Shown: in pieces, positions 4,445 to 40,527 of the stretch
Layout: each line of letters opens with the position of its first letter
How positions within the stretch are numbered: the stretch's first letter is position 1
Origin: a virus
Virus record (IMG/VR): IMGVR_UViG_3300024312_000006
Location: 1-44,599 of that record
DNA length: 44,599 nucleotides
Strand: one strand, 5' to 3'
Translations under genes and position numbers: made by a program
Notes under the pieces: model-generated
The model's database searches: none
What the model was told of the DNA's origin: nothing
The model's input: the letters and a program-made list of their open reading frames with translations, nothing else

Positions 4445-4487
4445 TAGCTACCAGGGAAGTAACCAGGGAGCCACCTACTAGGCAATA

Positions 4488-4501
4488 GGTACCTTAGATC
4501 A
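4488..4501 (+). promoter_or_regulatory. Candidate phage-polymerase promoter, left-end copy 1
   Basis: GGTACCTTAGATCA matches 12 of 14 bases of the motif found before the capsid and tail-fibre genes. It lies in the repeat array of the control region. A phage promoter near the genome end would fit replication-origin or full-length transcription use as in T7. Function inferred. Confidence 0.35.
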
Positions 4502-4648
4502 GAGGGGCATTGACCAGCACCAGGGAGCACCAGTACCAGGACACATACAACCAGGGACAGAACCAGGGAGGAACTACCAGGGAGCTAGGGACAGGAGACA
4601 CGGGATAGCTACCAGGGAAGTAACCAGGGCTAGGGCTACTAATCAATG

Positions 4649-4662
4649 AGTACCTTAGATCA
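4649..4662 (+). promoter_or_regulatory. Candidate phage-polymerase promoter, left-end copy 2
   Basis: AGTACCTTAGATCA, the duplicate of the site at 4488 exactly 161 bp downstream. Same reasoning; not tested. Confidence 0.35.
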
Positions 4663-4810
4663 AGGGGCGATTGATAGCCCGGGATAGCTACCAGGGAGAA
4701 CAACCTAGAGAACCAGGAAGAACAACCAGGGAGCTAGGGATAGAACACCAGGGAGGCACTACCAGGAACACCAGGGAAGAAGCTACCAGGGAGCATAGGT
4801 AGAAACCCTA

Positions 4811-4839
4811 TTGACATGGACCAGGGAAGTCATTACAGT
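4811..4839 (+). promoter_or_regulatory. Early promoter 1 (sigma70 type)
   Basis: TTGACA at 4811-4816, 17-bp spacer, TACAGT at 4834-4839. The spacer contains one ACCAGGGA repeat. First of five promoters with identical hexamers and spacing; read by host RNA polymerase right after entry. Confidence 0.8.
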
Positions 4840-4904
4840 AGAGGGCATGGATTAGCTCATGAGCTACCAGGGAGCTACTAGATAGCTACCAGGGAGCACA
4901 GGGC

Positions 4905-4933
4905 TTGACATACGGGAAAGATTGTGATACAGT
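4905..4933 (+). promoter_or_regulatory. Early promoter 2 (sigma70, extended -10)
   Basis: TTGACA at 4905-4910, 17-bp spacer ending in TGA, TACAGT at 4928-4933. The TG one base before the -10 gives an extended -10 element. Confidence 0.85.
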
Positions 4934-5008
4934 CCATTCCGTTGACCTCAACAGCTAGTAATAGCAGTGTTCCTAGGGGTTCCTAGGGTGGCTACAGAAC
5001 GTGAGGGG

Positions 5009-5037
5009 TTGACAACAGGGACAGACTGTGATACAGT
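5009..5037 (+). promoter_or_regulatory. Early promoter 3 (sigma70, extended -10)
   Basis: TTGACA at 5009-5014, 17-bp spacer, TGA-TACAGT with the -10 at 5032-5037. A tandem 10-bp repeat (TTCCTAGGGG/TTCCTAGGGT) lies about 40 bp upstream. Confidence 0.85.
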
Positions 5038-5082
5038 ACGAACCCAGCGACAGAGGAATCTGTTGCAGTCAATCTGAGAGGG

Positions 5083-5111
5083 TTGACAAGTAGTTTAGAC
5101 TGTGATACAGT
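5083..5111 (+). promoter_or_regulatory. Early promoter 4 (sigma70, extended -10)
   Basis: TTGACA at 5083-5088, 17-bp spacer, TGA-TACAGT with the -10 at 5106-5111. The sequence after the -10 (AGAGGCT) is the same as after promoter 5. Confidence 0.85.
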
Positions 5112-5219
5112 AGAGGCTGTTGATTATCGGATGCGACGGTGAACTATAGGTTGCCCTAGGGAGTGACTGACGTTCTTAAATTCGGGTGGCGCGAGTCACG
5201 GGAGCCGGGCTAAAGGTAG

Positions 5220-5248
5220 TTGACAACGTGCTGACACTGTGCTACAGT
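5220..5248 (+). promoter_or_regulatory. Early promoter 5 (sigma70, extended -10)
   Basis: TTGACA at 5220-5225, 17-bp spacer, TGC-TACAGT with the -10 at 5243-5248. It is the last promoter before the first gene, which begins about 700 nt further on. Confidence 0.85.
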
Positions 5249-5255
5249 AGAGGCT

Positions 5256-5945
5256 ACAGATCGCAAGATCATCGTTCTTTATGCGGTACGTCGTAAGGCG
5301 TATCTGGTGACACGGGAAGCAGCTAGGCTTAGGCTTGGTGGGCGGCAAACAACCCGGTGTCACGGGATGACCTAGGCTAGGTCGAATGTGGGTGGCGATA
5401 ATCCGCCCACGGACGGCTGATGACCTTAGGTAGGATCGTGGCTTGACCTCCCGAGAGTACATGCGGGGCAACAAGGTGCAGACCTCATGGATCGGACGTG
5501 TCTGGTCTGGTGGCTAGTAACCACTAAGGCAAAGGCGGGGATCGTGTGAGAGGATTCGGAAAGATCATAGACCGAGGCTGATAGGGTAGCCCGGACTGCT
5601 TAGAATGTGGGTAACTGCGGACTAGGTGGAATGGTGCGAGAGTAGGCAGAGGTAGGTTTATGGTAGAGTACGGATAACTGTCGGAACCCTTCGGGGGAAT
5701 ATGCCGACAGCGCCCAGGTCAAGGTGGCGCGAGATAACATGACCCTAACTCTAGCATCCCTAGGAGTATCCGAAGAATGGTGCTCAAGTATGATGGCGAG
5801 CCCTGCGCTTAGTGGGTGCTAGAGTTAGGACAGGCCGACAACAGGCGACGTGTGCAAGGGCTAACACCAAGCACACTGGACACAGTACGCGGCCCATGGT
5901 TTAGCCCAGGGTGTATCCTGTCCTTCTAATAGGAGGTGACAAGCT
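5256..5945 (+). ncRNA. Long structured untranslated leader of the early transcripts
   Basis: About 690 nt between the last host promoter and the first start codon, with no supported gene but a dense chain of hairpins. These include 5307-5316 with 5353-5363 (GTGACAC/GTGTCAC plus GGG/CCC), 5369-5374 with 5378-5383, 5388-5395 with 5403-5410 (8 bp), 5479-5484 with 5504-5509 (CAGACC/GGTCTG), 5510-5513 with 5521-5524, 5569-5579 with 5588-5597, 5678-5684 with 5704-5710 around a CCCTTCGGG hairpin, 5744-5756 with 5817-5829 (13 bp), and 5850-5855 with 5871-5876. It must be transcribed if the promoters work. Whether it is a separate RNA, a processed leader or a regulator is unknown. Confidence 0.55.
5744..5829 (+). 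other. Long-range 13-bp stem enclosing a branched loop
   Basis: CCTAACTCTAGCA (5744-5756) is perfectly complementary to TGCTAGAGTTAGG (5817-5829), and the helix can extend inward by one wobble and two G-C pairs. The enclosed 60 nt contain a smaller GCTC/GAGC stem (5782-5785 with 5798-5801). This is the strongest single structure in the leader. Confidence 0.7.
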
Positions 5946-6125: not shown

Positions 6126-6307
6126 AGATCCGCATTAACGTTGAAACGTTGGAGTACAACCTCAGGCAATGGTTCCTCAACGTCTATAAGGTGTGGGGAA
6201 CATACTACGGTGAGTATGCGTGCTGGGAAATCTTCGCCAACGATGTGCAAGAAGCAATCAATGTGGCGGTAACTGAGGGTATCAAGCATCCGAAGGTGGT
6301 GGTGTGA
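6122..6307 (+). CDS. Small unknown early protein
   Basis: A 61-residue protein with a GTG start overlapping the previous stop, so probably translated by coupling. Aromatic-rich middle (WFLNVYKVWGTYYGEYACW), helical C-terminal half ending in KVVV. No recognised family. Its stop overlaps the next GTG at 6304. Confidence 0.65.
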   Translation: MKIRINVETLEYNLRQWFLNVYKVWGTYYGEYACWEIFANDVQEAINVAVTEGIKHPKVVV

Positions 6308-6396
6308 AGCGCCGCGCCACGTTCATCCACTACTTCTATGCCACCGTGGCTCTAGCTGCGTGGGTAGGTTGTGTGTGGGTTGCCTCTCACTTCTGA
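6304..6396 (+). CDS. 30-residue putative membrane peptide
   Basis: GTG at 6304 overlaps the previous stop (GTGA). The product starts with basic MKRR and continues into one hydrophobic stretch (FYATVALAAWVGCVWVA), a clear single-span inner-membrane layout with N-in topology. It is short, but the coupled start and the charge-then-hydrophobic pattern support it. Role unknown; small early membrane peptides of T7-like phages often block other phages or inhibit host enzymes. Confidence 0.5.
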   Translation: MKRRATFIHYFYATVALAAWVGCVWVASHF

Positions 6397-6407
6397 CCTC
6401 AGACCCT

Positions 6408-6445
6408 GGCCCATCTTCGGTGGGCATGGGCCTGCGATTGGCAGG
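6408..6445 (+). other. Hairpins in the leader of the 6462 gene
   Basis: GGCCCAT 6408-6414 can pair with ATGGGCC 6426-6432. GCCCA 6409-6413 can instead pair with TGGGC 6421-6425. CCTGC 6431-6435 pairs with GCAGG 6441-6445 and is followed by TTT. The first option excludes the other two. The ribosome site AGGAG follows at 6451-6455. Confidence 0.45.
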
Positions 6446-6461
6446 TTTCTAGGAGACTTCA

Positions 6462-7037
6462 ATGTCCAAAGCTCAAGCCATCGCCATCATTGAATCTGGC
6501 GATGCCCTCAACAAGGAAATCAAGGCCATCGGCATTGCCGGTGCCAAGCTGGATGACCGCATCCAGGCTGCCGGTCTGTCGGCCATCTGGCACTTCGGTG
6601 TGCGGACGAACGACAAGGGCGAACTCATCGGCGACGTGGGGTTCATCAACCGGCTCTACAAGTCCCTGGGTAAGGGTGTGCGCCATGTCGCCTTCACCGA
6701 GTGGGTGACCAAGTTCGGCGGTGTCACTGCCAACGAGGGTGCAGACAAGGCCGACAACCCGTTCAAGAAGGATGCCAACAAGGTTGTTGACCTTGACGGT
6801 GCCCGTGAGCTGCCCTGGTTTGAGTGCAAGCCTTCCAAGGCCCCGGATGAAGTCCTGGACTTCTACGCCGTGCTCATGAAGGCGCTGAACAAGAAGGCCA
6901 AGGAAGGTCAGACCGTCAAGCACGCCGCTTTGGCCGACAAGGTGCGCAAGCTGATCCAAGACGAGATGGCCGAAGAAACTCAGACGGAAGCCGAGGCCCG
7001 CGCCCTGGCCTCTGCTGGCGAAGAACCGCCGATGTGA
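6462..7037 (+). CDS. Unknown early protein, 191 aa
   Basis: Soluble, helical protein with start ATG 6462, 6 nt after AGGAG. Features are a Lys/Ala-rich N-terminus, a central conserved-looking block (VGFINRLYKSLGKGVRH then a Trp), and an acidic Glu/Ala-rich C-terminal tail. GC-rich, regular codon use. It stands between two structured gaps, so it is probably expressed from its own processed message. I do not recognise a family; not obviously an enzyme. Confidence 0.75.
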   Translation: MSKAQAIAIIESGDALNKEIKAIGIAGAKLDDRIQAAGLSAIWHFGVRTNDKGELIGDVGFINRLYKSLGKGVRHVAFTEWVTKFGGVTANEGADKADNPFKKDANKVVDLDGARELPWFECKPSKAPDEVLDFYAVLMKALNKKAKEGQTVKHAALADKVRKLIQDEMAEETQTEAEARALASAGEEPPM

Positions 7038-7062
7038 TCGGTAGCTGCTGAGCACTGAGCTT

Positions 7063-7097
7063 AGACCGTTGCACATAGAAACTGTGTGCTTCGGTCT
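7063..7097 (+). other. AGACC-family hairpin A
   Basis: AGACCG 7063-7068 pairs with CGGTCT 7092-7097; a symmetric TT/TT internal loop separates this from GCACA 7071-7075 with TGTGC 7085-7089. It is preceded by GAGCT and followed by GCGTTC, flanks shared with the other members at 7493, 7763 and 7906. Confidence 0.7.
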
Positions 7098-7492
7098 GCG
7101 TTCTAGCAGACGCCGCGGCGAACAGCGGATAGAACACTCTGCCAGTGGAGAGGGCGACTGGTGTGTAATGGACAGTTAGTGATGACTTGGATTTAGGTTA
7201 TGCCCGATACCGTGGCTTCGTAACGGATCGTGCTGGGACCAGTAGGTGCCTAGATGATGTGGGTGGACCTGCTGGGTCGTGACCCGATTGAATCCGAACA
7301 GGTTGCAGACAAACTTGCGTATGCCTGAGGTACAAACTTACACGGCACTTGTATGCTGTGTGCCCAACTGCCCGAGTACAGCGCACTCGCAGGGTTACGG
7401 CAGAGTAAGGGGCAAACTACCATGAAGGACGCTGGCTGACGTACTAGCCCGTGGGGAAGCAGCGATAGTGCTCGGATCTATTCCGTGAGTAT

Positions 7493-7534
7493 AGACCTTA
7501 GGCCGAGTTGATCGCCGGCCCTAGGTGTGTGCTC
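7493..7534 (+). other. AGACC-family hairpin B
   Basis: ACCT 7495-7498 and GGCCG 7501-7505 pair with CGGCC 7516-7520 and AGGT 7523-7526 around a 2x2 internal loop, followed by GTGTGCTC. GAGTAT precedes it. It sits just upstream of the ribosome site of the 7553 gene. Confidence 0.6.
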
Positions 7535-7552
7535 AACCTGAAGGAGATGATG

Positions 7553-7726
7553 ATGTGTGTCCACAAGCGTGAACCCAATCGCAAGATGAGCCAAGCCCAC
7601 GACAAGATCAACAAGGAACGTGCTGCCGAGCGTCGTGGCGTGGTCACAGGTGCCGGTAAGGTGCTGCGTGAAGCACTGGCTGACTCGGGCCTGATCCGTC
7701 GCCGAGAAATCAAGCAAGCATCCTGA
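7553..7726 (+). CDS. Small basic early protein, unknown
   Basis: A 57-residue, Arg/Lys-rich protein. Three in-frame ATGs stand in a row (7547, 7550, 7553) directly after AAGGAG at 7541-7546. I choose the third because it gives a 6-nt spacing. Sequence pattern (AHDKINKERAAERRG) is helical and basic, so nucleic-acid or protein binding is possible. No family recognised. Confidence 0.65.
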   Translation: MCVHKREPNRKMSQAHDKINKERAAERRGVVTGAGKVLREALADSGLIRRREIKQAS

Positions 7727-7762
7727 CGAGGGTGGCTGCACCTAGCTAGGAGGTTCGAGCCT

Positions 7763-7826
7763 AGACCATCGCACGCAGGTCAGGGATTTAGACCCTGGTA
7801 AGATCACTTCCTGTGTGCCTTGGTCT
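7763..7826 (+). other. AGACC-family hairpin C
   Basis: AGACCA 7763-7768 pairs with TGGTCT 7821-7826; a 2x2 internal loop, then GCACGCAGG 7771-7779 with CCTGTGTGC 7810-7818 (one G-U), then a small CAGGG/CCCTG hairpin at 7781-7797. Same plan as hairpin A with a compensatory change in the last pair of the outer stem (G-C becomes A-T). Followed by GTGTTC. Confidence 0.7.
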
Positions 7827-7905
7827 GTGTTCGCCTAAGCCCTTGCCTATCCTTGGTCGGATGGGAACCGCATGGCGCGGATGGGAGTAAGCATGACCAG
7901 AGCAT

Positions 7906-7951
7906 AGACCCTTGTCCTTCCTTTTATAGGTTAGGTCCTGGGTGTGTGTTC
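7906..7951 (+). other. AGACC-family element D
   Basis: AGACCC at 7906-7911 with GGGT at 7940-7943, and a weaker CCTTCC/GGTTAGG pairing inside. It is flanked by GAGCAT upstream and GTGTGTTC downstream like the other members. The ribosome site of the next gene follows directly. Weakest structure of the four. Confidence 0.45.
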
Positions 7952-7962
7952 AGGAGGACAAC

Positions 7963-8466
7963 ATGGAGTTGACATTCAATAACTCAGCCCTTGTGGGTTC
8001 GTATGAACTCATGAGCCACTTTGTCGCACCTTTGGCTAAGGTGCTTGAGCGTAAGCAAAAACTGGTGCCGCATGAGCACAACGGTTACTCTGCGCTCACC
8101 TACTCTAAGCAAACCATGCACACGGCTTGCCTCAAAATCCGAGATAGGTTGGACGACCCTGTGTATGCAGAAGCAGATTGCATCGCAGTGACAGGCACGT
8201 CTGGCCTTAGTGTGGCCATGCTGCTGGTGCACGTTTACGAGGTGCGCCTGCCTATTCTGTACGTCCGTAAACCGACCGAACAGAGCCACGGACGAGACAT
8301 CGAGCTGATTGCTGGTCGCGGCTACTTTGGTGACCGCCGCTTTGCTCAAGCAATCTTCGTTGACGATTGTTCGTGCAGCGGAAACACTAGGCGAAGGGTT
8401 GCCGACTCGCTTCTTCGTAAAGGCACTACTCTGCACGAAGATTCCATCTACTATGACTGGGGCTAA
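7963..8466 (+). CDS. Phosphoribosyltransferase-like protein
   Basis: A 167-residue protein with a type I PRTase look: a core strand and loop ADCIAVTGTSGLSVAM (pyrophosphate-binding region) and the PRPP loop IFVDDCSCSGNT with D134-D135. Such enzymes join a base to PRPP in nucleotide salvage, and some members are regulators. The substrate cannot be read from sequence. ATG 7963 is chosen because AGGAGG 7952-7957 stands 5 nt upstream; an upstream in-frame GTG (7942) lacks one. It lies among early genes rather than with the nucleotide enzymes at 20179. Confidence 0.75.
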   Translation: MELTFNNSALVGSYELMSHFVAPLAKVLERKQKLVPHEHNGYSALTYSKQTMHTACLKIRDRLDDPVYAEADCIAVTGTSGLSVAMLLVHVYEVRLPILYVRKPTEQSHGRDIELIAGRGYFGDRRFAQAIFVDDCSCSGNTRRRVADSLLRKGTTLHEDSIYYDWG

Positions 8467-14316: not shown

Positions 14317-14423
14317 TGATGGATCAGTTCATCGTGTCTACTCATGGTGCTGTGCGGTACCTCTGCCTAGAAGACTTAGGCTGGCCATGCAAGGCGTGGC
14401 TGGTTATCAAAAGGTTGTCATGA
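14316..14423 (+). CDS. Small protein coupled to DNA polymerase, 35 aa
   Basis: ATGATG at 14316 overlaps the previous stop, with AAGGA about 7 nt upstream. Its stop overlaps the polymerase start (ATGA, 14420-14423). The sequence (MMDQFIVSTHGAVRYLCLED) is protein-like. It may simply couple translation into the polymerase gene, or be a real small protein. Confidence 0.45.
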   Translation: MMDQFIVSTHGAVRYLCLEDLGWPCKAWLVIKRLS

Positions 14424-16924
14424 GCTTCGCAACTCTGGACGTTGAGTCCACCATCACAACCAGCCGCAAACGTAAAGGTAATCCTTTCGACAAACGCAAC
14501 TACGTTGTGGCGGCTGGTATTCAATACCAGAACGAGAAGGCCAAGGCTTGGTACTTCGGACGGCAAGGTCCGCCCAAGGGCTGGCTCAAGCCCTACCTCA
14601 CAGGCAAGATCGTAGTTGGGCACAACATCAAATACGACCTGCACCACGCGCTGAACGACAACGAGAACCTCCTGCTGTGGATGGACTACGTTGCCAAGGG
14701 TGGTTTGATCTGGGACACCCAGCTTGCTGAGTACCTCCTTGAGGGGATGACTCAGGAGAACCATTACCTCAGCCTAGAGGATGTGTCTCTTCGGTACGGT
14801 GGCGACTACAAGGTTGACGAGGTCAAGGCACTGTGGGAAGCGGGCGTGGACACGCCGGACATCGAGCCTGAGCTGTTGCTCCGGTACCTGATCGGCGGCA
14901 ACGACGAGACCGGCACGTTCAAGGAAGGCGACATCGGCAACACGACCAAGGTATTCCTTGGCCAGCTTGCCCGAGCCCGAGCAGCAGGTCAGCTGAACAG
15001 CATCTTGCTGAACATGGGTTCCCTCATCTGTACGGTTGAGATGGAACGCAACGGGATGTTCGTTGAGCAAGTGCTGGCCCTTGATCTTGCTAAGGATCTT
15101 GAGAAGAAGATCGGCGAGCTGGCTGCTGCCATGCAGCAGTTCATTCCCGAGGACATCCCGTTCCCCTTCAAGTGGTCAAGCTCGCGGCAAAAGTCAGCCC
15201 TGCTGTTTGGTGGGTCGGTCAAGTACCCGCGTCGTGAATACAAGCTCAAGACAGGTGAGTACGTATTCGAGGATCGCTTCCCACTTCAGGCTTGTGGTAA
15301 GCTACGTAAGCAAGACGTGACATACCCAGGGCAGCACTTCCCCGCCGATGCCTTTGAGTACACTCAAAAAGAGGAAGAGCACTACGTCATGATGGGTGGC
15401 GGAACGGTGGCCAAAGAACTGGCTAACGAGTCGCACATCCCACGCATCGAGTGCTACAAGTCTGGTAAGAACGCCGGTGCACCCAAGACCAAGAAGGTCA
15501 AGGTCAACGACTACACAAAGCCGAAGTCCCGCATGGGCGAGGACTGGTACACTTTCAAGGGCTACACCCAGCCTAAGAAAGCATGGGAGTCCGAGGCTAC
15601 CCCTGGTGTGTACAGCACCAGCAGCGAGGTCATCGAAGAGCTGGGCACCAGAAACATCCCGTTCCTCAAAGCACTAGCAGAGTTCTCGTCACTCACCAAA
15701 GACCTCGGCACGTACTACATAACGTACGACGAGAAGGGTGAGGCGAAGGGTATGCTGTCCCTGCTGGATGAACTGTCGATCATCCACCACAAGATCAACC
15801 ACACGTCGGTGGTTACGGGTCGGTTCTCATCCAGTGACCCTAACCTGCAGAACATCCCTAAGGGCAACAAGTCCGATATCAAGTCGGTCTTCATGTCACG
15901 GTTTGGCAGGTACATCGTCGATGACTTTGGTAATCTGGTGTATGTGTCTGCCGGCAAGATCATTCAGTCTGACTTCACGGCTCTGGAAATCTACATCCAA
16001 GCTCTGCTCACCAAGTGCAAGCAACTCATCATCGACCTGAAGGCCGGCCTTGACATGCACTGCGTGCGTCTGGCTACCAAGGAGAAGATGGACTACGCCG
16101 AGGTGGTCAAGCTGGCTAAGGGCTTTGACCTAGATGGGGTGTGGCACGACGCAGTCAAGGAGTGGGACTACAAGCGTACTGCGGCTAAGACCTTCTCCTT
16201 CCAGCGTGCTTATGGCGCTGGTGCTCAGAAGATCGCTGACTCGACTGGCCTACCAATCGAGGAGGTAGAGGCACTGATCGAGGCGGACAACCTGCGTTAC
16301 CCAGAGATCGAGCCCTTCTTCGAGGGGCTGGCGCAAGACCTGAAGCTGAGCCGCAAGCCGTGGCGCAGCTGTGTACCGCACCCTGACATCCCCGGTGTGA
16401 TCTGCAACCTGGGTCGTGGGTTCTACCGCACGCCTGACCAGAAGCTGTACGCCTACACGGAGCACCCTGCCCCAGAGTTCGTGGTCAACCACAAGAACCC
16501 TGCCCGCAGGGCTAACCAGTCCTTCTCACCTACCGAGATCAAGAACTACATTGTTCAGGGTGAGGGGGGTGAGTGGGCCAAGGCGGCTATGTGGTTGGCT
16601 GTGCGTTCCTTCTACTTCTATCAGAACTTCCAGCATCGTGCCTTGCTGGTCAACCAGGTGCACGACGCCCTCTATGCGGACGCCCAAGATGACGCAGCAT
16701 TTGAGTCGGCCTGCTTGCTGCACGCTTGCATGGAAGCTGCCTCTGACTTCATGGAATGGAAGTTCAACTGGAAGGTTGAAGTACCTGTTCCATCTGACAC
16801 GACCTGGGGTCGCAGCATGATGGAAGAAGAAAAGATCCCCGGCCTCAAGGCCCGTGCTGCCGAGTACCGTAGCTGGCTCCGCACCACGTTCATGTCCGGC
16901 TACGTCCCCTCATTCGCAAAATGA
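14420..16924 (+). CDS. Family A DNA polymerase with 3'-5' exonuclease
   Basis: Replicative polymerase, 834 residues against 704 in T7. Exonuclease motifs: D7 and E9 in TLDVEST, and NIKYD in the second motif. Polymerase motif A is DFTALE (D518, E523) in place of the usual DYSQIELR; motif B is RTAAKTFSFQRAYG (R586, K590); motif C is VHDA (H748, D749), where Ala replaces the usual Glu. Long segments between exonuclease and palm account for the extra length. ATG 14420 has AAAGG upstream; the frame is open to 14387 without a better site. The pocket substitutions are worth noting, but core catalytic Asp residues are present. Confidence 0.93.
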   Translation: MSFATLDVESTITTSRKRKGNPFDKRNYVVAAGIQYQNEKAKAWYFGRQGPPKGWLKPYLTGKIVVGHNIKYDLHHALNDNENLLLWMDYVAKGGLIWDTQLAEYLLEGMTQENHYLSLEDVSLRYGGDYKVDEVKALWEAGVDTPDIEPELLLRYLIGGNDETGTFKEGDIGNTTKVFLGQLARARAAGQLNSILLNMGSLICTVEMERNGMFVEQVLALDLAKDLEKKIGELAAAMQQFIPEDIPFPFKWSSSRQKSALLFGGSVKYPRREYKLKTGEYVFEDRFPLQACGKLRKQDVTYPGQHFPADAFEYTQKEEEHYVMMGGGTVAKELANESHIPRIECYKSGKNAGAPKTKKVKVNDYTKPKSRMGEDWYTFKGYTQPKKAWESEATPGVYSTSSEVIEELGTRNIPFLKALAEFSSLTKDLGTYYITYDEKGEAKGMLSLLDELSIIHHKINHTSVVTGRFSSSDPNLQNIPKGNKSDIKSVFMSRFGRYIVDDFGNLVYVSAGKIIQSDFTALEIYIQALLTKCKQLIIDLKAGLDMHCVRLATKEKMDYAEVVKLAKGFDLDGVWHDAVKEWDYKRTAAKTFSFQRAYGAGAQKIADSTGLPIEEVEALIEADNLRYPEIEPFFEGLAQDLKLSRKPWRSCVPHPDIPGVICNLGRGFYRTPDQKLYAYTEHPAPEFVVNHKNPARRANQSFSPTEIKNYIVQGEGGEWAKAAMWLAVRSFYFYQNFQHRALLVNQVHDALYADAQDDAAFESACLLHACMEAASDFMEWKFNWKVEVPVPSDTTWGRSMMEEEKIPGLKARAAEYRSWLRTTFMSGYVPSFAK

Positions 16925-20977: not shown

Positions 20978-21849
20978 TGGGCTACTTCATCCAGAAAGCA
21001 ATCGAACTTGACGAAGTCAACCGCAAGAAAGTACCGCTCACAACGCTTGCGGACTACACGCTCATGGCTAAGTATGACGGCTGCCATGGCCTCGTTACCT
21101 TCTATGGTGCCGACCTCGTCGAGTGCCGTACTGGCTCAGGAGATCCCTGGCTGTCTGTTCATGACGGAATCCTCAACCCGTTGTTCGACCGATGGGTTGA
21201 GATTGGGCGACCCGGCCCTTACTTTACATTTGCTGGCGAGGCTTGGATACCTGACACGGAGCACGCCGCCATCAACGGAACTTTCCGACGACAATCTAAA
21301 CAGCCTGATCTTAGATTCGTTCAGTTCGACACCATCCAGCACGACGTCAAGGATGTGCTCGCTGACGAGCGCACGTTCTTTGAGCGATGGACACGCGCCT
21401 CCAATGCCGGAAGTTCTGTGCTCTTGGCTGCCGAGTGGCCATCTACAACCATTGACGATGCACATACCACGGCACGTTGTCTTAAAGCAGGAGCTTCAGC
21501 TTATGACGGCTGCGTGCTAGTCCACAAGCACAAGCCCTACAAGCCGGGTCGATGCCGCGATGGTGAGAAGATCAAGGTTAAGCCTGCCCTGGAGTTCGAC
21601 CTGCGCGTCATTCGGTTCAACCCGGCTAACGGGGAGAAGACCGGCAAGATCACTGGCAGCATCACAGTTGACTTTGAGGGTAAGGAGTTGGACGTGGCTG
21701 TGCTACGAGAAGACGACCTCGAAGAACTTCATGCAGACAACAACGCATGGAGCGGACGCATCGTTGCCGTTGAGGCGATGGCACGTAGCTCCAAGGGCCT
21801 ACTGCGTGAGCCTCGCTTGAAGGGTGGGCCACGCATCGACAAGACATAA
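20977..21849 (+). CDS. ATP-dependent DNA ligase
   Basis: A 290-residue ligase that seals nicks in replicated phage DNA. Motif I is MAKYDG with the adenylated lysine K32. Motif III is around FTFAGEAW, motif IV around AYDGCVLVHK, motif V at GEKIKVKP. The OB-fold C-terminal part follows. It is shorter than T7 ligase (359 residues). TGATG overlap with the preceding stop; GGTGGAG upstream. The reading frame is open to 20941, but ATG 20977 gives the natural N-terminus. Confidence 0.9.
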   Translation: MGYFIQKAIELDEVNRKKVPLTTLADYTLMAKYDGCHGLVTFYGADLVECRTGSGDPWLSVHDGILNPLFDRWVEIGRPGPYFTFAGEAWIPDTEHAAINGTFRRQSKQPDLRFVQFDTIQHDVKDVLADERTFFERWTRASNAGSSVLLAAEWPSTTIDDAHTTARCLKAGASAYDGCVLVHKHKPYKPGRCRDGEKIKVKPALEFDLRVIRFNPANGEKTGKITGSITVDFEGKELDVAVLREDDLEELHADNNAWSGRIVAVEAMARSSKGLLREPRLKGGPRIDKT

Positions 21850-21851
21850 GC

Positions 21852-24317
21852 ATGACACTACTGACTCAGATTGAAGTTGAAGAACAGATGTACCAGGGTG
21901 GTATCACCCGTGCGCAAGCATCCATGCAGGCCAACGAGGCCAGAGGTGCGGCTGACCAGAACGCCTACGCCAAGGCAGTCTACCGTGACTGGATTGACCC
22001 GGTCGCTACTGAGATTGCCCTCGACGTGGGAGAACGCTCGAACAAGCCGGGGCAGCGCATGGCCTACACTACCCTGCTTCGACCGCTCAACGCTGAGGCA
22101 GTAGCCCTTATTGCTTTGCGGCAGGCGCTTACTTTCTGCATGGCCATGAACGAGGACAACCGGCACCACCGCGCTTTGTCGAACGCCCTCGGAGCTGCGG
22201 TGCACTCTGAGCTGGTGTTGACTCAGATCGACAGCTTAGAGCCTGACCTGTTCATGACCATTGCCCGAGACCTGGGCCGTCGGCGCAGCAAGAATCTGCG
22301 CCACAAGATGGCAGTCTTCAGGAACCAAGCGTCTGCCCACCAAATCGAGTTGACAGAGTGGCCAGTAGGGGCGCGTGACCAAGTCGGCATGTATCTGCTC
22401 GGCGTGTTAGAACGATGCGGAGTGCTCGACATCGGTGAAACTTACCGACAGGGTTACAAACACGCCTATCGTCCGGTCAATCTGTCAACCGACCTTCTGC
22501 AGAAGATCGAGCAAATCAAGGGCTTCGTGAGTATTACCTCACCTGTATACGGCCCTTGTGTGGAGCCCCCTTTGGATTGGGAGACCCCGGTTGGGGGTGG
22601 CTTCCACACTGCTCGTCTTCGCCGTGCCTTGCCTGTAGTGGTGCGCTGCCACCCTAATAGCCGCGACCTATACACCCAAGGGTGGAACCCGCCCAGATTC
22701 CTGGCCGCTGTGAACAACATGCAGCGTACCAGCTGGCAGGTGAACAAGCAGGTGCTCGACACCATCTTAGCTGTAGCAGAGGACGGCAACGTGGGTGAGA
22801 TCGTATCCATTGCCGAAGAACCCAAGCCTGCCCTACCCTCGTGGCTAACTCCTGACATGAAGAAGGAGACCATGACGGAGGTGCAGCTGGAGTCCTTCCT
22901 TTCTTGGAAGCGCAGCGTGGCCGAGTGGCACACGAAGATGAAGCTCTTGCGTAGTAAGTTCGGGCGATTCTACGCAGCATCCCGTGCAGCCCAGATGTTC
23001 CGCGACTACCCTAACCTGTACTTTGTGTACTTCGCTGACAGCCGTGGTCGGCTGTACCCGTTGACCTACGGGGTAAACCCACAAGGCAGCGACCTGCAGA
23101 AGGCACTACTTCGCTTCTCTGTAGGCAAGGCGCTTACCACACCAGAGGCTGTGCTGTGGTTCCACGTTCTTGGTGCTAACAAGTTCGGCTTCGATAAGGC
23201 TTCTCTACAAGACCGCATGGCCTGGGTGATTGAGCGTAAAGAGCAGCTTGTCGCCATTGCCGAAGACCCACTGAATAACCGTGGGTGGCTCGACGCAGAC
23301 TGCCCGCTGCAATTCCTGGCGTGGTGCTTCGAGTACAAGGGGTGGCTTGACGATCCCCTGAACTTCAAGAGCCACCTACCCGTCGGGTTGGACGGTTCGT
23401 GCAACGGCCTGCAACACTTGTCGGCCATGACCCGCGACCCCATCGGCGGCGCGGCGACGAACCTGATTCCGGCCGCGACCATGAACGACATTTACAGGCA
23501 GGTCGCCGAGGCCGCCACAACGCGCATGGCGGCGTTTTCTTACCTGGGTGAAGGGGCTGATGAGGACGCGCAGAAAAAAGAGGCTGTGCGCCTTAAATGG
23601 CTGGCCCACGGCGTCAGCCGGTCAGCCGTTAAACGCAGCGTGATGACTACCCCGTATGGAGTGACGAAGCGCAGCGCCACCACCTACGTCATTAGTGATT
23701 ACCTGGAGGCGGGCAATGCCCCTTGCTTCACCAAGGAGGAATACTACACCGCAGCATCGGTGCTCATGGATCACGCATGGCCAGCTATCGGTGACGTGGT
23801 TGTGCGGGGGCGACACGTCCTTGATTGGCTGCGACGAGCGGCCACGATCATGACGGGCAAGCTAGGTGAAGAGAAGGTGCTGTGGTGGCGGACACCGTCC
23901 GGTTTTGTCGCCAGCCAGTCCCACTTCGAGCTGGAGTTCCGCCGCATCACGACTAGGTTGTACGGTGTGGAGAAGATCCGGGTGCCTGTAGAGTCAGACC
24001 TGATCGACATTGCGGGACACAAGGCGGGACTTCCTCCTAACTTCATCCATAGTCTGGACGCGGCCCACCTTCACGTGGTAGCCGCTGCCGCACCTGAGCA
24101 AGGTATCAGCCACCTTGCCATGATTCACGACGACTACGGCACCCATGCAGCCGATGCCGACAAACTATACACGCTCATCCGAGAAAAGTTTGTCTGGCTG
24201 TACGAAAACTTCGACCCGCTGTGCGACTTGCAGGAGCAGTACAATCTGCCAAAGCCGCCTGACAAGGGTGGCCTCGACATCTCAGTGGTTCGCAACAGCG
24301 AATTTTTCTTCTCTTAA
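21852..24317 (+). CDS. Single-subunit phage RNA polymerase (T7 family)
   Basis: An 821-residue polymerase (T7: 883) that should read the later phage genes. Motif A GLDGSCNGLQH has D514; motif B is RSAVKRSVMTTPYG with K594; motif C is MIHDDYGT with D760. The specificity loop lies between RITTRLYGVEKIRV and LPPNFIHSLD and differs from T7, so its promoter should differ too. It is the last gene before the virion block, the phiKMV arrangement, which means the enzyme is made fairly late. A motif suited to be its promoter (24321) stands right after its stop. Confidence 0.95.
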   Translation: MTLLTQIEVEEQMYQGGITRAQASMQANEARGAADQNAYAKAVYRDWIDPVATEIALDVGERSNKPGQRMAYTTLLRPLNAEAVALIALRQALTFCMAMNEDNRHHRALSNALGAAVHSELVLTQIDSLEPDLFMTIARDLGRRRSKNLRHKMAVFRNQASAHQIELTEWPVGARDQVGMYLLGVLERCGVLDIGETYRQGYKHAYRPVNLSTDLLQKIEQIKGFVSITSPVYGPCVEPPLDWETPVGGGFHTARLRRALPVVVRCHPNSRDLYTQGWNPPRFLAAVNNMQRTSWQVNKQVLDTILAVAEDGNVGEIVSIAEEPKPALPSWLTPDMKKETMTEVQLESFLSWKRSVAEWHTKMKLLRSKFGRFYAASRAAQMFRDYPNLYFVYFADSRGRLYPLTYGVNPQGSDLQKALLRFSVGKALTTPEAVLWFHVLGANKFGFDKASLQDRMAWVIERKEQLVAIAEDPLNNRGWLDADCPLQFLAWCFEYKGWLDDPLNFKSHLPVGLDGSCNGLQHLSAMTRDPIGGAATNLIPAATMNDIYRQVAEAATTRMAAFSYLGEGADEDAQKKEAVRLKWLAHGVSRSAVKRSVMTTPYGVTKRSATTYVISDYLEAGNAPCFTKEEYYTAASVLMDHAWPAIGDVVVRGRHVLDWLRRAATIMTGKLGEEKVLWWRTPSGFVASQSHFELEFRRITTRLYGVEKIRVPVESDLIDIAGHKAGLPPNFIHSLDAAHLHVVAAAAPEQGISHLAMIHDDYGTHAADADKLYTLIREKFVWLYENFDPLCDLQEQYNLPKPPDKGGLDISVVRNSEFFFS

Positions 24318-24320
24318 ACG

Positions 24321-24337
24321 AGTACCTGTAATCACAG
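24321..24337 (+). promoter_or_regulatory. Candidate phage-polymerase promoter before the virion genes
   Basis: AGTACCTGTAATCACAG begins 3 nt after the RNA polymerase stop, in the only gap before the structural operon. It differs from the copies at 27591 and 40512 only at the first base and one interior base (G for T). Function inferred from repetition and position. Confidence 0.5.
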
Positions 24338-27587: not shown

Positions 27588-27590
27588 TTA

Positions 27591-27607
27591 GGTACCTTTA
27601 ATCACAG
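27591..27607 (+). promoter_or_regulatory. Candidate phage-polymerase promoter before capsid
   Basis: GGTACCTTTAATCACAG starts 3 nt after the scaffold stop and 42 nt before the capsid ATG. In T7 the strongest late promoter (phi10) is exactly here. Shares 16 bases with the site at 40512. Confidence 0.55.
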
Positions 27608-28649: not shown

Positions 28650-28678
28650 GCCCCTCCCTAGCCGGGAGGGGCTTTTTT
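28650..28678 (+). terminator. Rho-independent-type terminator after capsid
   Basis: GCCCCTCCC 28650-28658 pairs with GGGAGGGGC 28664-28672 across a TAGCC loop, followed by six T. It is the strongest terminator in the genome and matches T7's T-phi after gene 10. It would lower expression of the tail genes relative to capsid. Confidence 0.92.
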
Positions 28679-28686
28679 GTTTGCTT

Positions 28687-40510: not shown

Positions 40511-40511
40511 A

Positions 40512-40527
40512 GGTACCTTTAATCACA
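40512..40527 (+). promoter_or_regulatory. Candidate phage-polymerase promoter before tail fibre
   Basis: GGTACCTTTAATCACA begins 2 nt after the ejection-protein stop and is identical to the site before the capsid gene over 16 bases. It is followed by a hairpin and then the tail-fibre ribosome site. Confidence 0.55.

What the first reader, a model, noticed from the sequence alone, without database searches (positions are those of the whole stretch)
7063..7951. Family of AGACC/GGTCT hairpins between early genes, with compensatory changes
Elements at 7063, 7493, 7763 and 7906 share an upstream GAG-NN-AGACC and a downstream TG(T/C)GTTC or GTGTG(C/T)TC. At 7063 and 7763 the outer stem is AGACCG/CGGTCT and AGACCA/TGGTCT, a paired change, with the same 2x2 internal loop and a GCAC/GTGC inner stem. 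Further AGACC-type stems occur in the leader at 5479-5509 and 5569-5597. T7 early RNA is cut by RNase III at hairpins between genes; these could be the counterpart, or sites for an RNA-binding protein.
Basis: partly seen in the sequence, partly recalled or inferred. Interest (0 to 1): 0.65.

Follow-up and report, generated by a model that had tools for sequence, protein, structure and literature searches.

The report
Phage mRNA-punctuating hairpins with refolding tails
Between its early genes this T7-like virus of bacteria carries five copies of a precisely built RNA hairpin shared with a whole branch of related phages; it most likely marks where the long early messenger RNA is cut into gene-sized pieces, and the piece downstream of the cut can usually refold into a small protective hairpin.

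Summary
E1-E4 (7057-7103, 7487-7534, 7757-7832, 7900-7951) are strong sense-strand hairpins (z -5.4 to -6.4); the two leader stems are not members. A structural scan and covariance models reveal an RNA family absent from Rfam: a fifth window copy, E0 (6395-6439), and about 40 copies in 14 related phage records, including Curvibacter phage P26059B and Aquamicrobium phage P14. Geometry is fixed: 12-nt arms with set non-canonical positions (5, 8-9), a 2x2 loop (mostly UU/UU), a GC-rich upper stem. A7-U, U13 and G15-C are near-invariant; other pairs covary. Most copies lie between genes, after stop codons and/or 12-31 nt before start codons. Also new: in 24 of 36 elements the 3' arm can re-pair with the sequence just downstream (0 of 2000 within-genome permutations as good), a hairpin exclusive with the lower stem. 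Best reading: host RNase III-type processing sites, as in T7, cut in the internal loop so that both new mRNA ends can be hairpin-capped. T7's R1.1 is the only match among the reference phages, but weak (E about 0.05). Cleavage is untested.

The parts
6395..6439 (+). E0: fifth copy, 22 nt upstream of the start of gene A; predicted cut near 6426-6428
   Evidence: model R1 E=2.5e-5, R2 E=7e-9 (R2 includes this copy)
6428..6448 (+). alternative hairpin of E0: 3' arm GGGCCUGC (6428-6435) with GCAGGUUU (6441-6448)
7057..7103 (+). E1: copy 20 nt after the stop of gene A; predicted cut near 7090-7092
   Evidence: z -6.4; R1 E=1.5e-11
7094..7111 (+). alternative hairpin of E1: GUCUGC (7094-7099) with GCAGAC (7106-7111)
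7487..7534 (+). E2: copy directly before the Shine-Dalgarno of gene B; predicted cut near 7521-7523; alternative pairing weak (AGGU/ACCU)
   Evidence: z -6.0; R1 E=4.6e-10
7757..7832 (+). E3: copy 31 nt after the stop of gene B, with a longer inner arm; predicted cut near 7819-7821; no alternative hairpin found
   Evidence: z -5.4; R1 E=5.8e-6, not in the training set
7900..7951 (+). E4: copy directly before the Shine-Dalgarno of gene C; predicted cut near 7938-7940; alternative pairing weak
   Evidence: z -5.6; R1 E=8.8e-10
6462..7037 (+). gene A (phrog_1448, unknown function; homologues in phiKMV-like phages), bracketed by E0 and E1
7550..7726 (+). gene B (small, unknown), bracketed by E2 and E3; start is one of the in-frame ATGs 7547/7550/7553
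7963..8466 (+). gene C (unknown function), preceded by E4
4811..5248 (+). five tandem TTGACA-N17-TACAGT promoters expected to drive the early transcript that carries the elements

Best explanation
The elements are RNA processing signals that punctuate the polycistronic early mRNA and work like the RNase III sites of T7. Host RNA polymerase reads from the five leader promoters through genes A, B and C (inferred). Each element folds as a long imperfect duplex: a 12-position lower stem, a 2x2 UU/UU-type loop and a GC-rich upper stem (structure supported by covariation). A host double-strand-specific RNase, most likely RNase III, cuts the 3' strand at the internal loop (inferred from T7 R1.1). The upper stem-loop stays on the upstream mRNA as a 3' cap (inferred). 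The freed 3' arm then pairs with the sequence just downstream, giving a small hairpin 0-4 nt from the new 5' end (the pairing is shown statistically; that it forms after cutting is inferred). The conserved weak positions of the lower stem (5, 8, 9) would let the two halves part after the cut. The result would be gene-sized mRNAs with protected ends. In the window only E0 and E1 have a strong second hairpin; E2 and E4 have a weak one and E3 none, so the refolding step is common but not universal.
For: Sense-strand copies at gene boundaries: 27 of 43 begin within 10 nt of a stop codon (some overlap it) and 22 of 43 end 12-31 nt before a start with a Shine-Dalgarno. Five tandem promoters upstream. 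Fixed geometry with 12 of 14 pairs changing on both sides and invariant letters A7-U, U13, G15-C. No terminator-like T-run at any element. T7 R1.1, a 60-nt RNA with an internal loop that RNase III cuts into 47 and 13 nt (PMC6121014), is the only R2 match at E<=0.1 in eight named reference phages, over the full model; the 3' lower arm here is 12 nt. Alternative pairing: 24 of 36 elements against a swap mean of 12.7; 0 of 2000 within-genome permutations as good. The intact lower stem (median -11.6 kcal/mol) beats the second hairpin (-7.9), as a refold-after-cut model needs.
Against: No RNA-end or cleavage data for any carrier phage. The T7 match is weak (E about 0.05) and may only reflect that strong T7 hairpins are RNase III sites; T7 site R0.3 scores at noise level. 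Sequence conservation (A7, U13, G15) is stronger than RNase III is generally thought to need, which would also suit a specific protein. Window copies E2-E4 have a weak second hairpin or none. Pair statistics are inflated because descriptor and model demand pairing.
Confidence: 0.58

Rival explanations
1. A binding site for a phage or host RNA-binding protein, or a bistable switch without cutting (antitermination- or translation-control-like). A ribosome ending at the adjacent stop codon would cover the 5' arm and let the second hairpin form.
For: Invariant letters inside the helix, two mutually exclusive structures, many copies overlapping or touching a stop codon.
Against: The second hairpin neither hides the Shine-Dalgarno in most copies nor ends in a U-run. 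Several copies per genome, one per gene boundary, fit punctuation better than a single regulatory switch. Some copies lie far from a preceding stop (E2, E4).
Confidence: 0.27
2. Hairpins that stabilise mRNA 3' ends or block exonucleases in place, without being cut (REP-like or terminator-like).
For: GC-rich stems directly after stop codons, also after the major capsid gene in two genomes.
Against: No U-runs; half the copies sit 12-31 nt before a start codon; the conserved internal loop and alternative downstream pairing have no role.
Confidence: 0.1
3. Recent duplications or DNA-level repeats with no RNA role.
For: Similar copies within one genome.
Against: Inner stems and loops are unrelated between copies while pairs covary; strict strand and gene-boundary placement; conserved among phages with RNA polymerases only about 50% identical.
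Confidence: 0.03

Closest known systems
Bacteriophage T7 early RNase III processing sites (type R1.1)
   Same: Between early genes, sense strand, long imperfect hairpin with internal loop, no U-run; R1.1 is matched by model R2 over its full length (E about 0.05), and its 3' product also folds near the 5' end.
   Different: T7 R1.1 has an asymmetric 4/5-nt loop (PMC6121014) where these have a symmetric 2x2 UU/UU; fixed non-canonical positions 5, 8, 9 and invariant A7-U and G15-C are specific to this family; two copies per gene (before and after) in the window; the covarying second hairpin is general here but seen in only two of six T7 sites.
Ribozyme-plus-hairpin insulators (RiboJ type, synthetic parts)
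   Same: Cut followed by a hairpin at the new 5' end in front of the ribosome-binding site (described in PMC6993053).
   Different: No self-cleavage motif known here; the hairpin is built from the 3' arm of the cut structure itself.
Intrinsic transcription terminators
   Same: GC-rich hairpin after a stop codon.
   Different: No U-run, and in many copies directly followed by a Shine-Dalgarno and gene start.
Rfam release 15 families
   Same: None.
   Different: No match at gathering scores over the window nor at E<=1 over 6300-8100.

Membership tests
T7-type phage RNase III processing site | located between genes on the transcribed strand of the early region | tested here: met
   two records also have a copy in the late region
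T7-type phage RNase III processing site | imperfect hairpin with internal loop and about 20 or more helical positions, without a U-run | tested here: met
T7-type phage RNase III processing site | sequence/structure relationship to T7 sites | tested here: inconclusive
   R2 matches R1.1 at E about 0.05, 0.0075 for 5.7 kb; other T7 sites at noise level
T7-type phage RNase III processing site | cut by RNase III in the 3' strand of the internal loop | not testable with these tools
   needs enzyme assay or RNA-end mapping
intrinsic terminator | hairpin followed by a run of U | tested here: not met
   no + strand terminator-like site at any element
any curated Rfam family | covariance-model match | tested here: not met
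put/nut-type antitermination element | suppresses termination downstream | not tested
   needs a functional assay; the per-gene copies are unlike put/nut (own knowledge)

The most novel reading that the evidence does not exclude
A new class of bistable 'cut-and-cap' mRNA punctuation element: cutting one hairpin frees an arm that is built to re-pair downstream, so that one conserved RNA of about 65 nt gives the upstream message a 3' cap and the downstream message a 5' cap that insulates its translation start, used repeatedly along a phage genome and in some phages after the capsid gene.
Probability: 0.4. Interest if true: 0.75.

Novelty: new variant of a known kind. Interest (0 to 1): 0.62.

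Why it matters
It defines an RNA family that Rfam lacks and that the papers on the two named carrier phages do not mention. It gives a comparative, sequence-constrained candidate for phage RNase III processing well outside the T7 lineage, and the covarying second structure makes a direct prediction of how phage messages acquire stable ends. If right, it is a natural insulator part for multi-gene constructs in Alpha- and Betaproteobacteria.

Tried and rejected
Exact-sequence pattern scans of viral and genome collections with the window's own consensus: only chance-level hits. A loose stem descriptor on the whole window: uninformative. Leader stems 5479 and 5569: rejected. The idea that the 383-nt E1-E2 spacer is a conserved small RNA: no excess structure in the window (z 0.16) and hardly any sequence conservation beyond the near-identical pair G003/G004. 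Terminator: rejected. Scans with early-gene proteins found few relatives; the RNA polymerase was the productive anchor. The contig closest by gene A (G034 = L082) shows a UAGAC/GUCUG hairpin after gene A when folded, but neither model scores it, so it is not counted. G017 has one weak hit in the E0 position (E=0.03), not counted. T7 sites other than R1.1 and R0.5 show no 5' refolding.

Full report
Setting. The window is a 44.6 kb virus record with a family A DNA polymerase at 14387-16924 and a single-subunit RNA polymerase at 21852-24317 directly before the structural genes, the gene order reported for phiKMV-like phages (PMC5295034). By DNA it has no close annotated relative; its RNA polymerase is at best 51% identical to a named phage, Curvibacter phage P26059B. 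Upstream of the early genes lies a 1.9 kb non-coding leader with five exact TTGACA-N17-TACAGT promoters at 4811-5248, all on the + strand.

Observation. E1-E4 are real hairpins with z-scores of -6.4, -6.0, -5.4 and -5.6. GAG-N3-AGACC occurs four times within 850 nt on the + strand and once more in the genome, on the other strand. The four share one geometry: 4 bp, position 5 often mismatched, seven positions UAGACCN/NGGUSUG, a 2x2 loop, a variable inner stem. Position 12 is G-C, U-A, A-U and C-G in the four copies. E1 and E3, which follow genes, have a pyrimidine mismatch at position 5 and G-C at position 8; E2 and E4, which precede genes, have A-U at 5 and G.G at 8.

Relatives. I fetched early regions of 16 related phages reached through the RNA polymerase and gene A and scanned them for the bare geometry, requiring pairs but no letters. 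The hits share a consensus that had not been asked for. From 21 sequences I built model R1. In the window R1 finds the four known copies plus E0 at 6395-6439 and nothing else up to E=10. It gives 39 matches in 14 of 50 related records at E<=0.01, and one more. Carriers include Curvibacter phage P26059B (five copies; identity of the record confirmed) and Aquamicrobium phage P14 (three copies). On 42 distinct aligned copies 97.4% of cells are paired, 12 of 14 pairs change on both sides, and the covariation score is 0.82, against 0.24 shuffled and at most 0.19 with slid partners. A7-U86, U13 and G15-C78 are near-invariant and the 2x2 loop is UU/UU in 24 and UA/CU in 7; position 9 is A.C or C.A in 24 of 36. 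The pairing figures are inflated because descriptor and model demand pairs; the invariant letters were not demanded by the descriptor, and E0 and E3 were found by R1 without being in its training set. In a tree of 22 RNA polymerases, 11 of the 12 rows that carry the element form a fully supported group together with one other row; P14 lies outside it. Twelve other named phages, among them phiKMV, LKD16, SP6 and KP34, have no match up to E=10.

Placement. Of 43 elements listed, 27 begin within 10 nt of a stop codon (some overlap it) and 22 end 12-31 nt before a start codon with a Shine-Dalgarno (ORFs by a simple rule). The annotated P26059B record agrees: copies lie directly after gp39, between gp36 and gp35, and between gp35 and gp34. 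P26059B and G008 each have a further copy directly after the major capsid gene, in the late region. In the window that place holds a terminator-like hairpin with a U-run instead.

Second structure. The 3' arm (positions 9' to 4') is complementary to the sequence just downstream: ACCUGCG/CGCAGGU, GCCUACA/UGUAGGU, GGUACA/UGUACC, AAGUGCG/UGCACUU, and in E1 GUCUGC/GCAGAC. 24 of 36 elements form at least five of six such pairs; swapping downstream parts between elements gives 12.7 on average and never more than 21 in 500 trials. Permuting only within genomes, which removes shared ancestry between genomes as a cause, 0 of 2000 reach the observed score. While the RNA is intact the lower stem (median -11.6 kcal/mol) is favoured over the second hairpin (median -7.9). 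Folded 3' fragments leave 0-4 unpaired nt at the 5' end in 31 of 36, and are more stable than expected (mean z -1.5, against -0.6 for the mirror fragments). In the window the second hairpin is strong for E0 and E1, weak for E2 and E4 and absent for E3.

Interpretation. Position, strand, long imperfect duplex with internal loop, and lack of a U-run are what is known of T7 RNase III sites. T7 R1.1 is a 60-nt RNA with an internal loop, cut into 47 and 13 nt (PMC6121014). With R2 the only match at E<=0.1 in eight named reference phages is T7 5850-5902, the R1.1 site, aligned over the full model. That match is weak and could reflect a general liking of the model for strong hairpins, so I count it as suggestive. 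A single cut that leaves a 3' fold is reported to stabilise mRNA (PMC6993053). I propose that a cut in the 3' strand at the 2x2 loop leaves the upper stem as a 3' cap and frees the 3' arm to make a 5' cap. This explains the conserved weak positions: 8' and 9' follow the downstream partner rather than the 5' arm, and the halves must separate. Shown here: the family, its main structure, its placement, and the alternative pairing. Inferred: the nuclease, the cut position, the order of events and the stabilising effect. The main rival is a protein-bound or ribosome-driven switch without cutting.

Novelty. No Rfam family matches. The papers on P26059B and P14 contain no mention of hairpins, terminators or secondary structure, and searches of the open-licence paper library found no description of the element; papers outside that library were not searched. 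It works like a known kind but with a different structural plan and a refolding step, hence 'new variant of a known kind'.

Noticed in passing
window 4450-4895: Fifteen copies of ACCAGGGA, all on the + strand, in the non-coding leader just upstream of and overlapping the first promoters; 21 in the whole window against 1.7 expected. Function unknown; perhaps a protein-binding array.
   Followed up: partly
window 4811-5248: Five tandem TTGACA-N17-TACAGT promoters, four with TG before the second hexamer.
   Followed up: yes
window 27590-27606 and 40511-40527; variants 24320-24336 and 4487-4503: AGGTACCTTTAATCACA repeated exactly twice with two 3-mismatch variants (0.05 expected); likely promoters of the phage's own RNA polymerase, before the capsid gene and late genes.
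   Followed up: partly
window 28650-28680: Strong GC-rich hairpin followed by six or more U directly after the probable major capsid gene, where two relatives carry the processing element instead.
   Followed up: partly
G013 (P26059B) 16344-16391 and G008 21436-21483 (locus L389): Copies of the element in the late region, between the major capsid gene and the next gene.
   Followed up: partly
window 7104-7486: Non-coding stretch between E1 and E2. The layout gene A - element - 200-500 nt non-coding - element recurs in G003, G004, G011 and G013, but with little sequence conservation. It could be released as a small RNA.
   Followed up: partly
G011 8925, G012 30329, G013 just after 36047 (minus strand): Elements whose downstream partner is replaced by a conserved YGCAATAGCYT instead of the complementary hexamer.
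   Followed up: no
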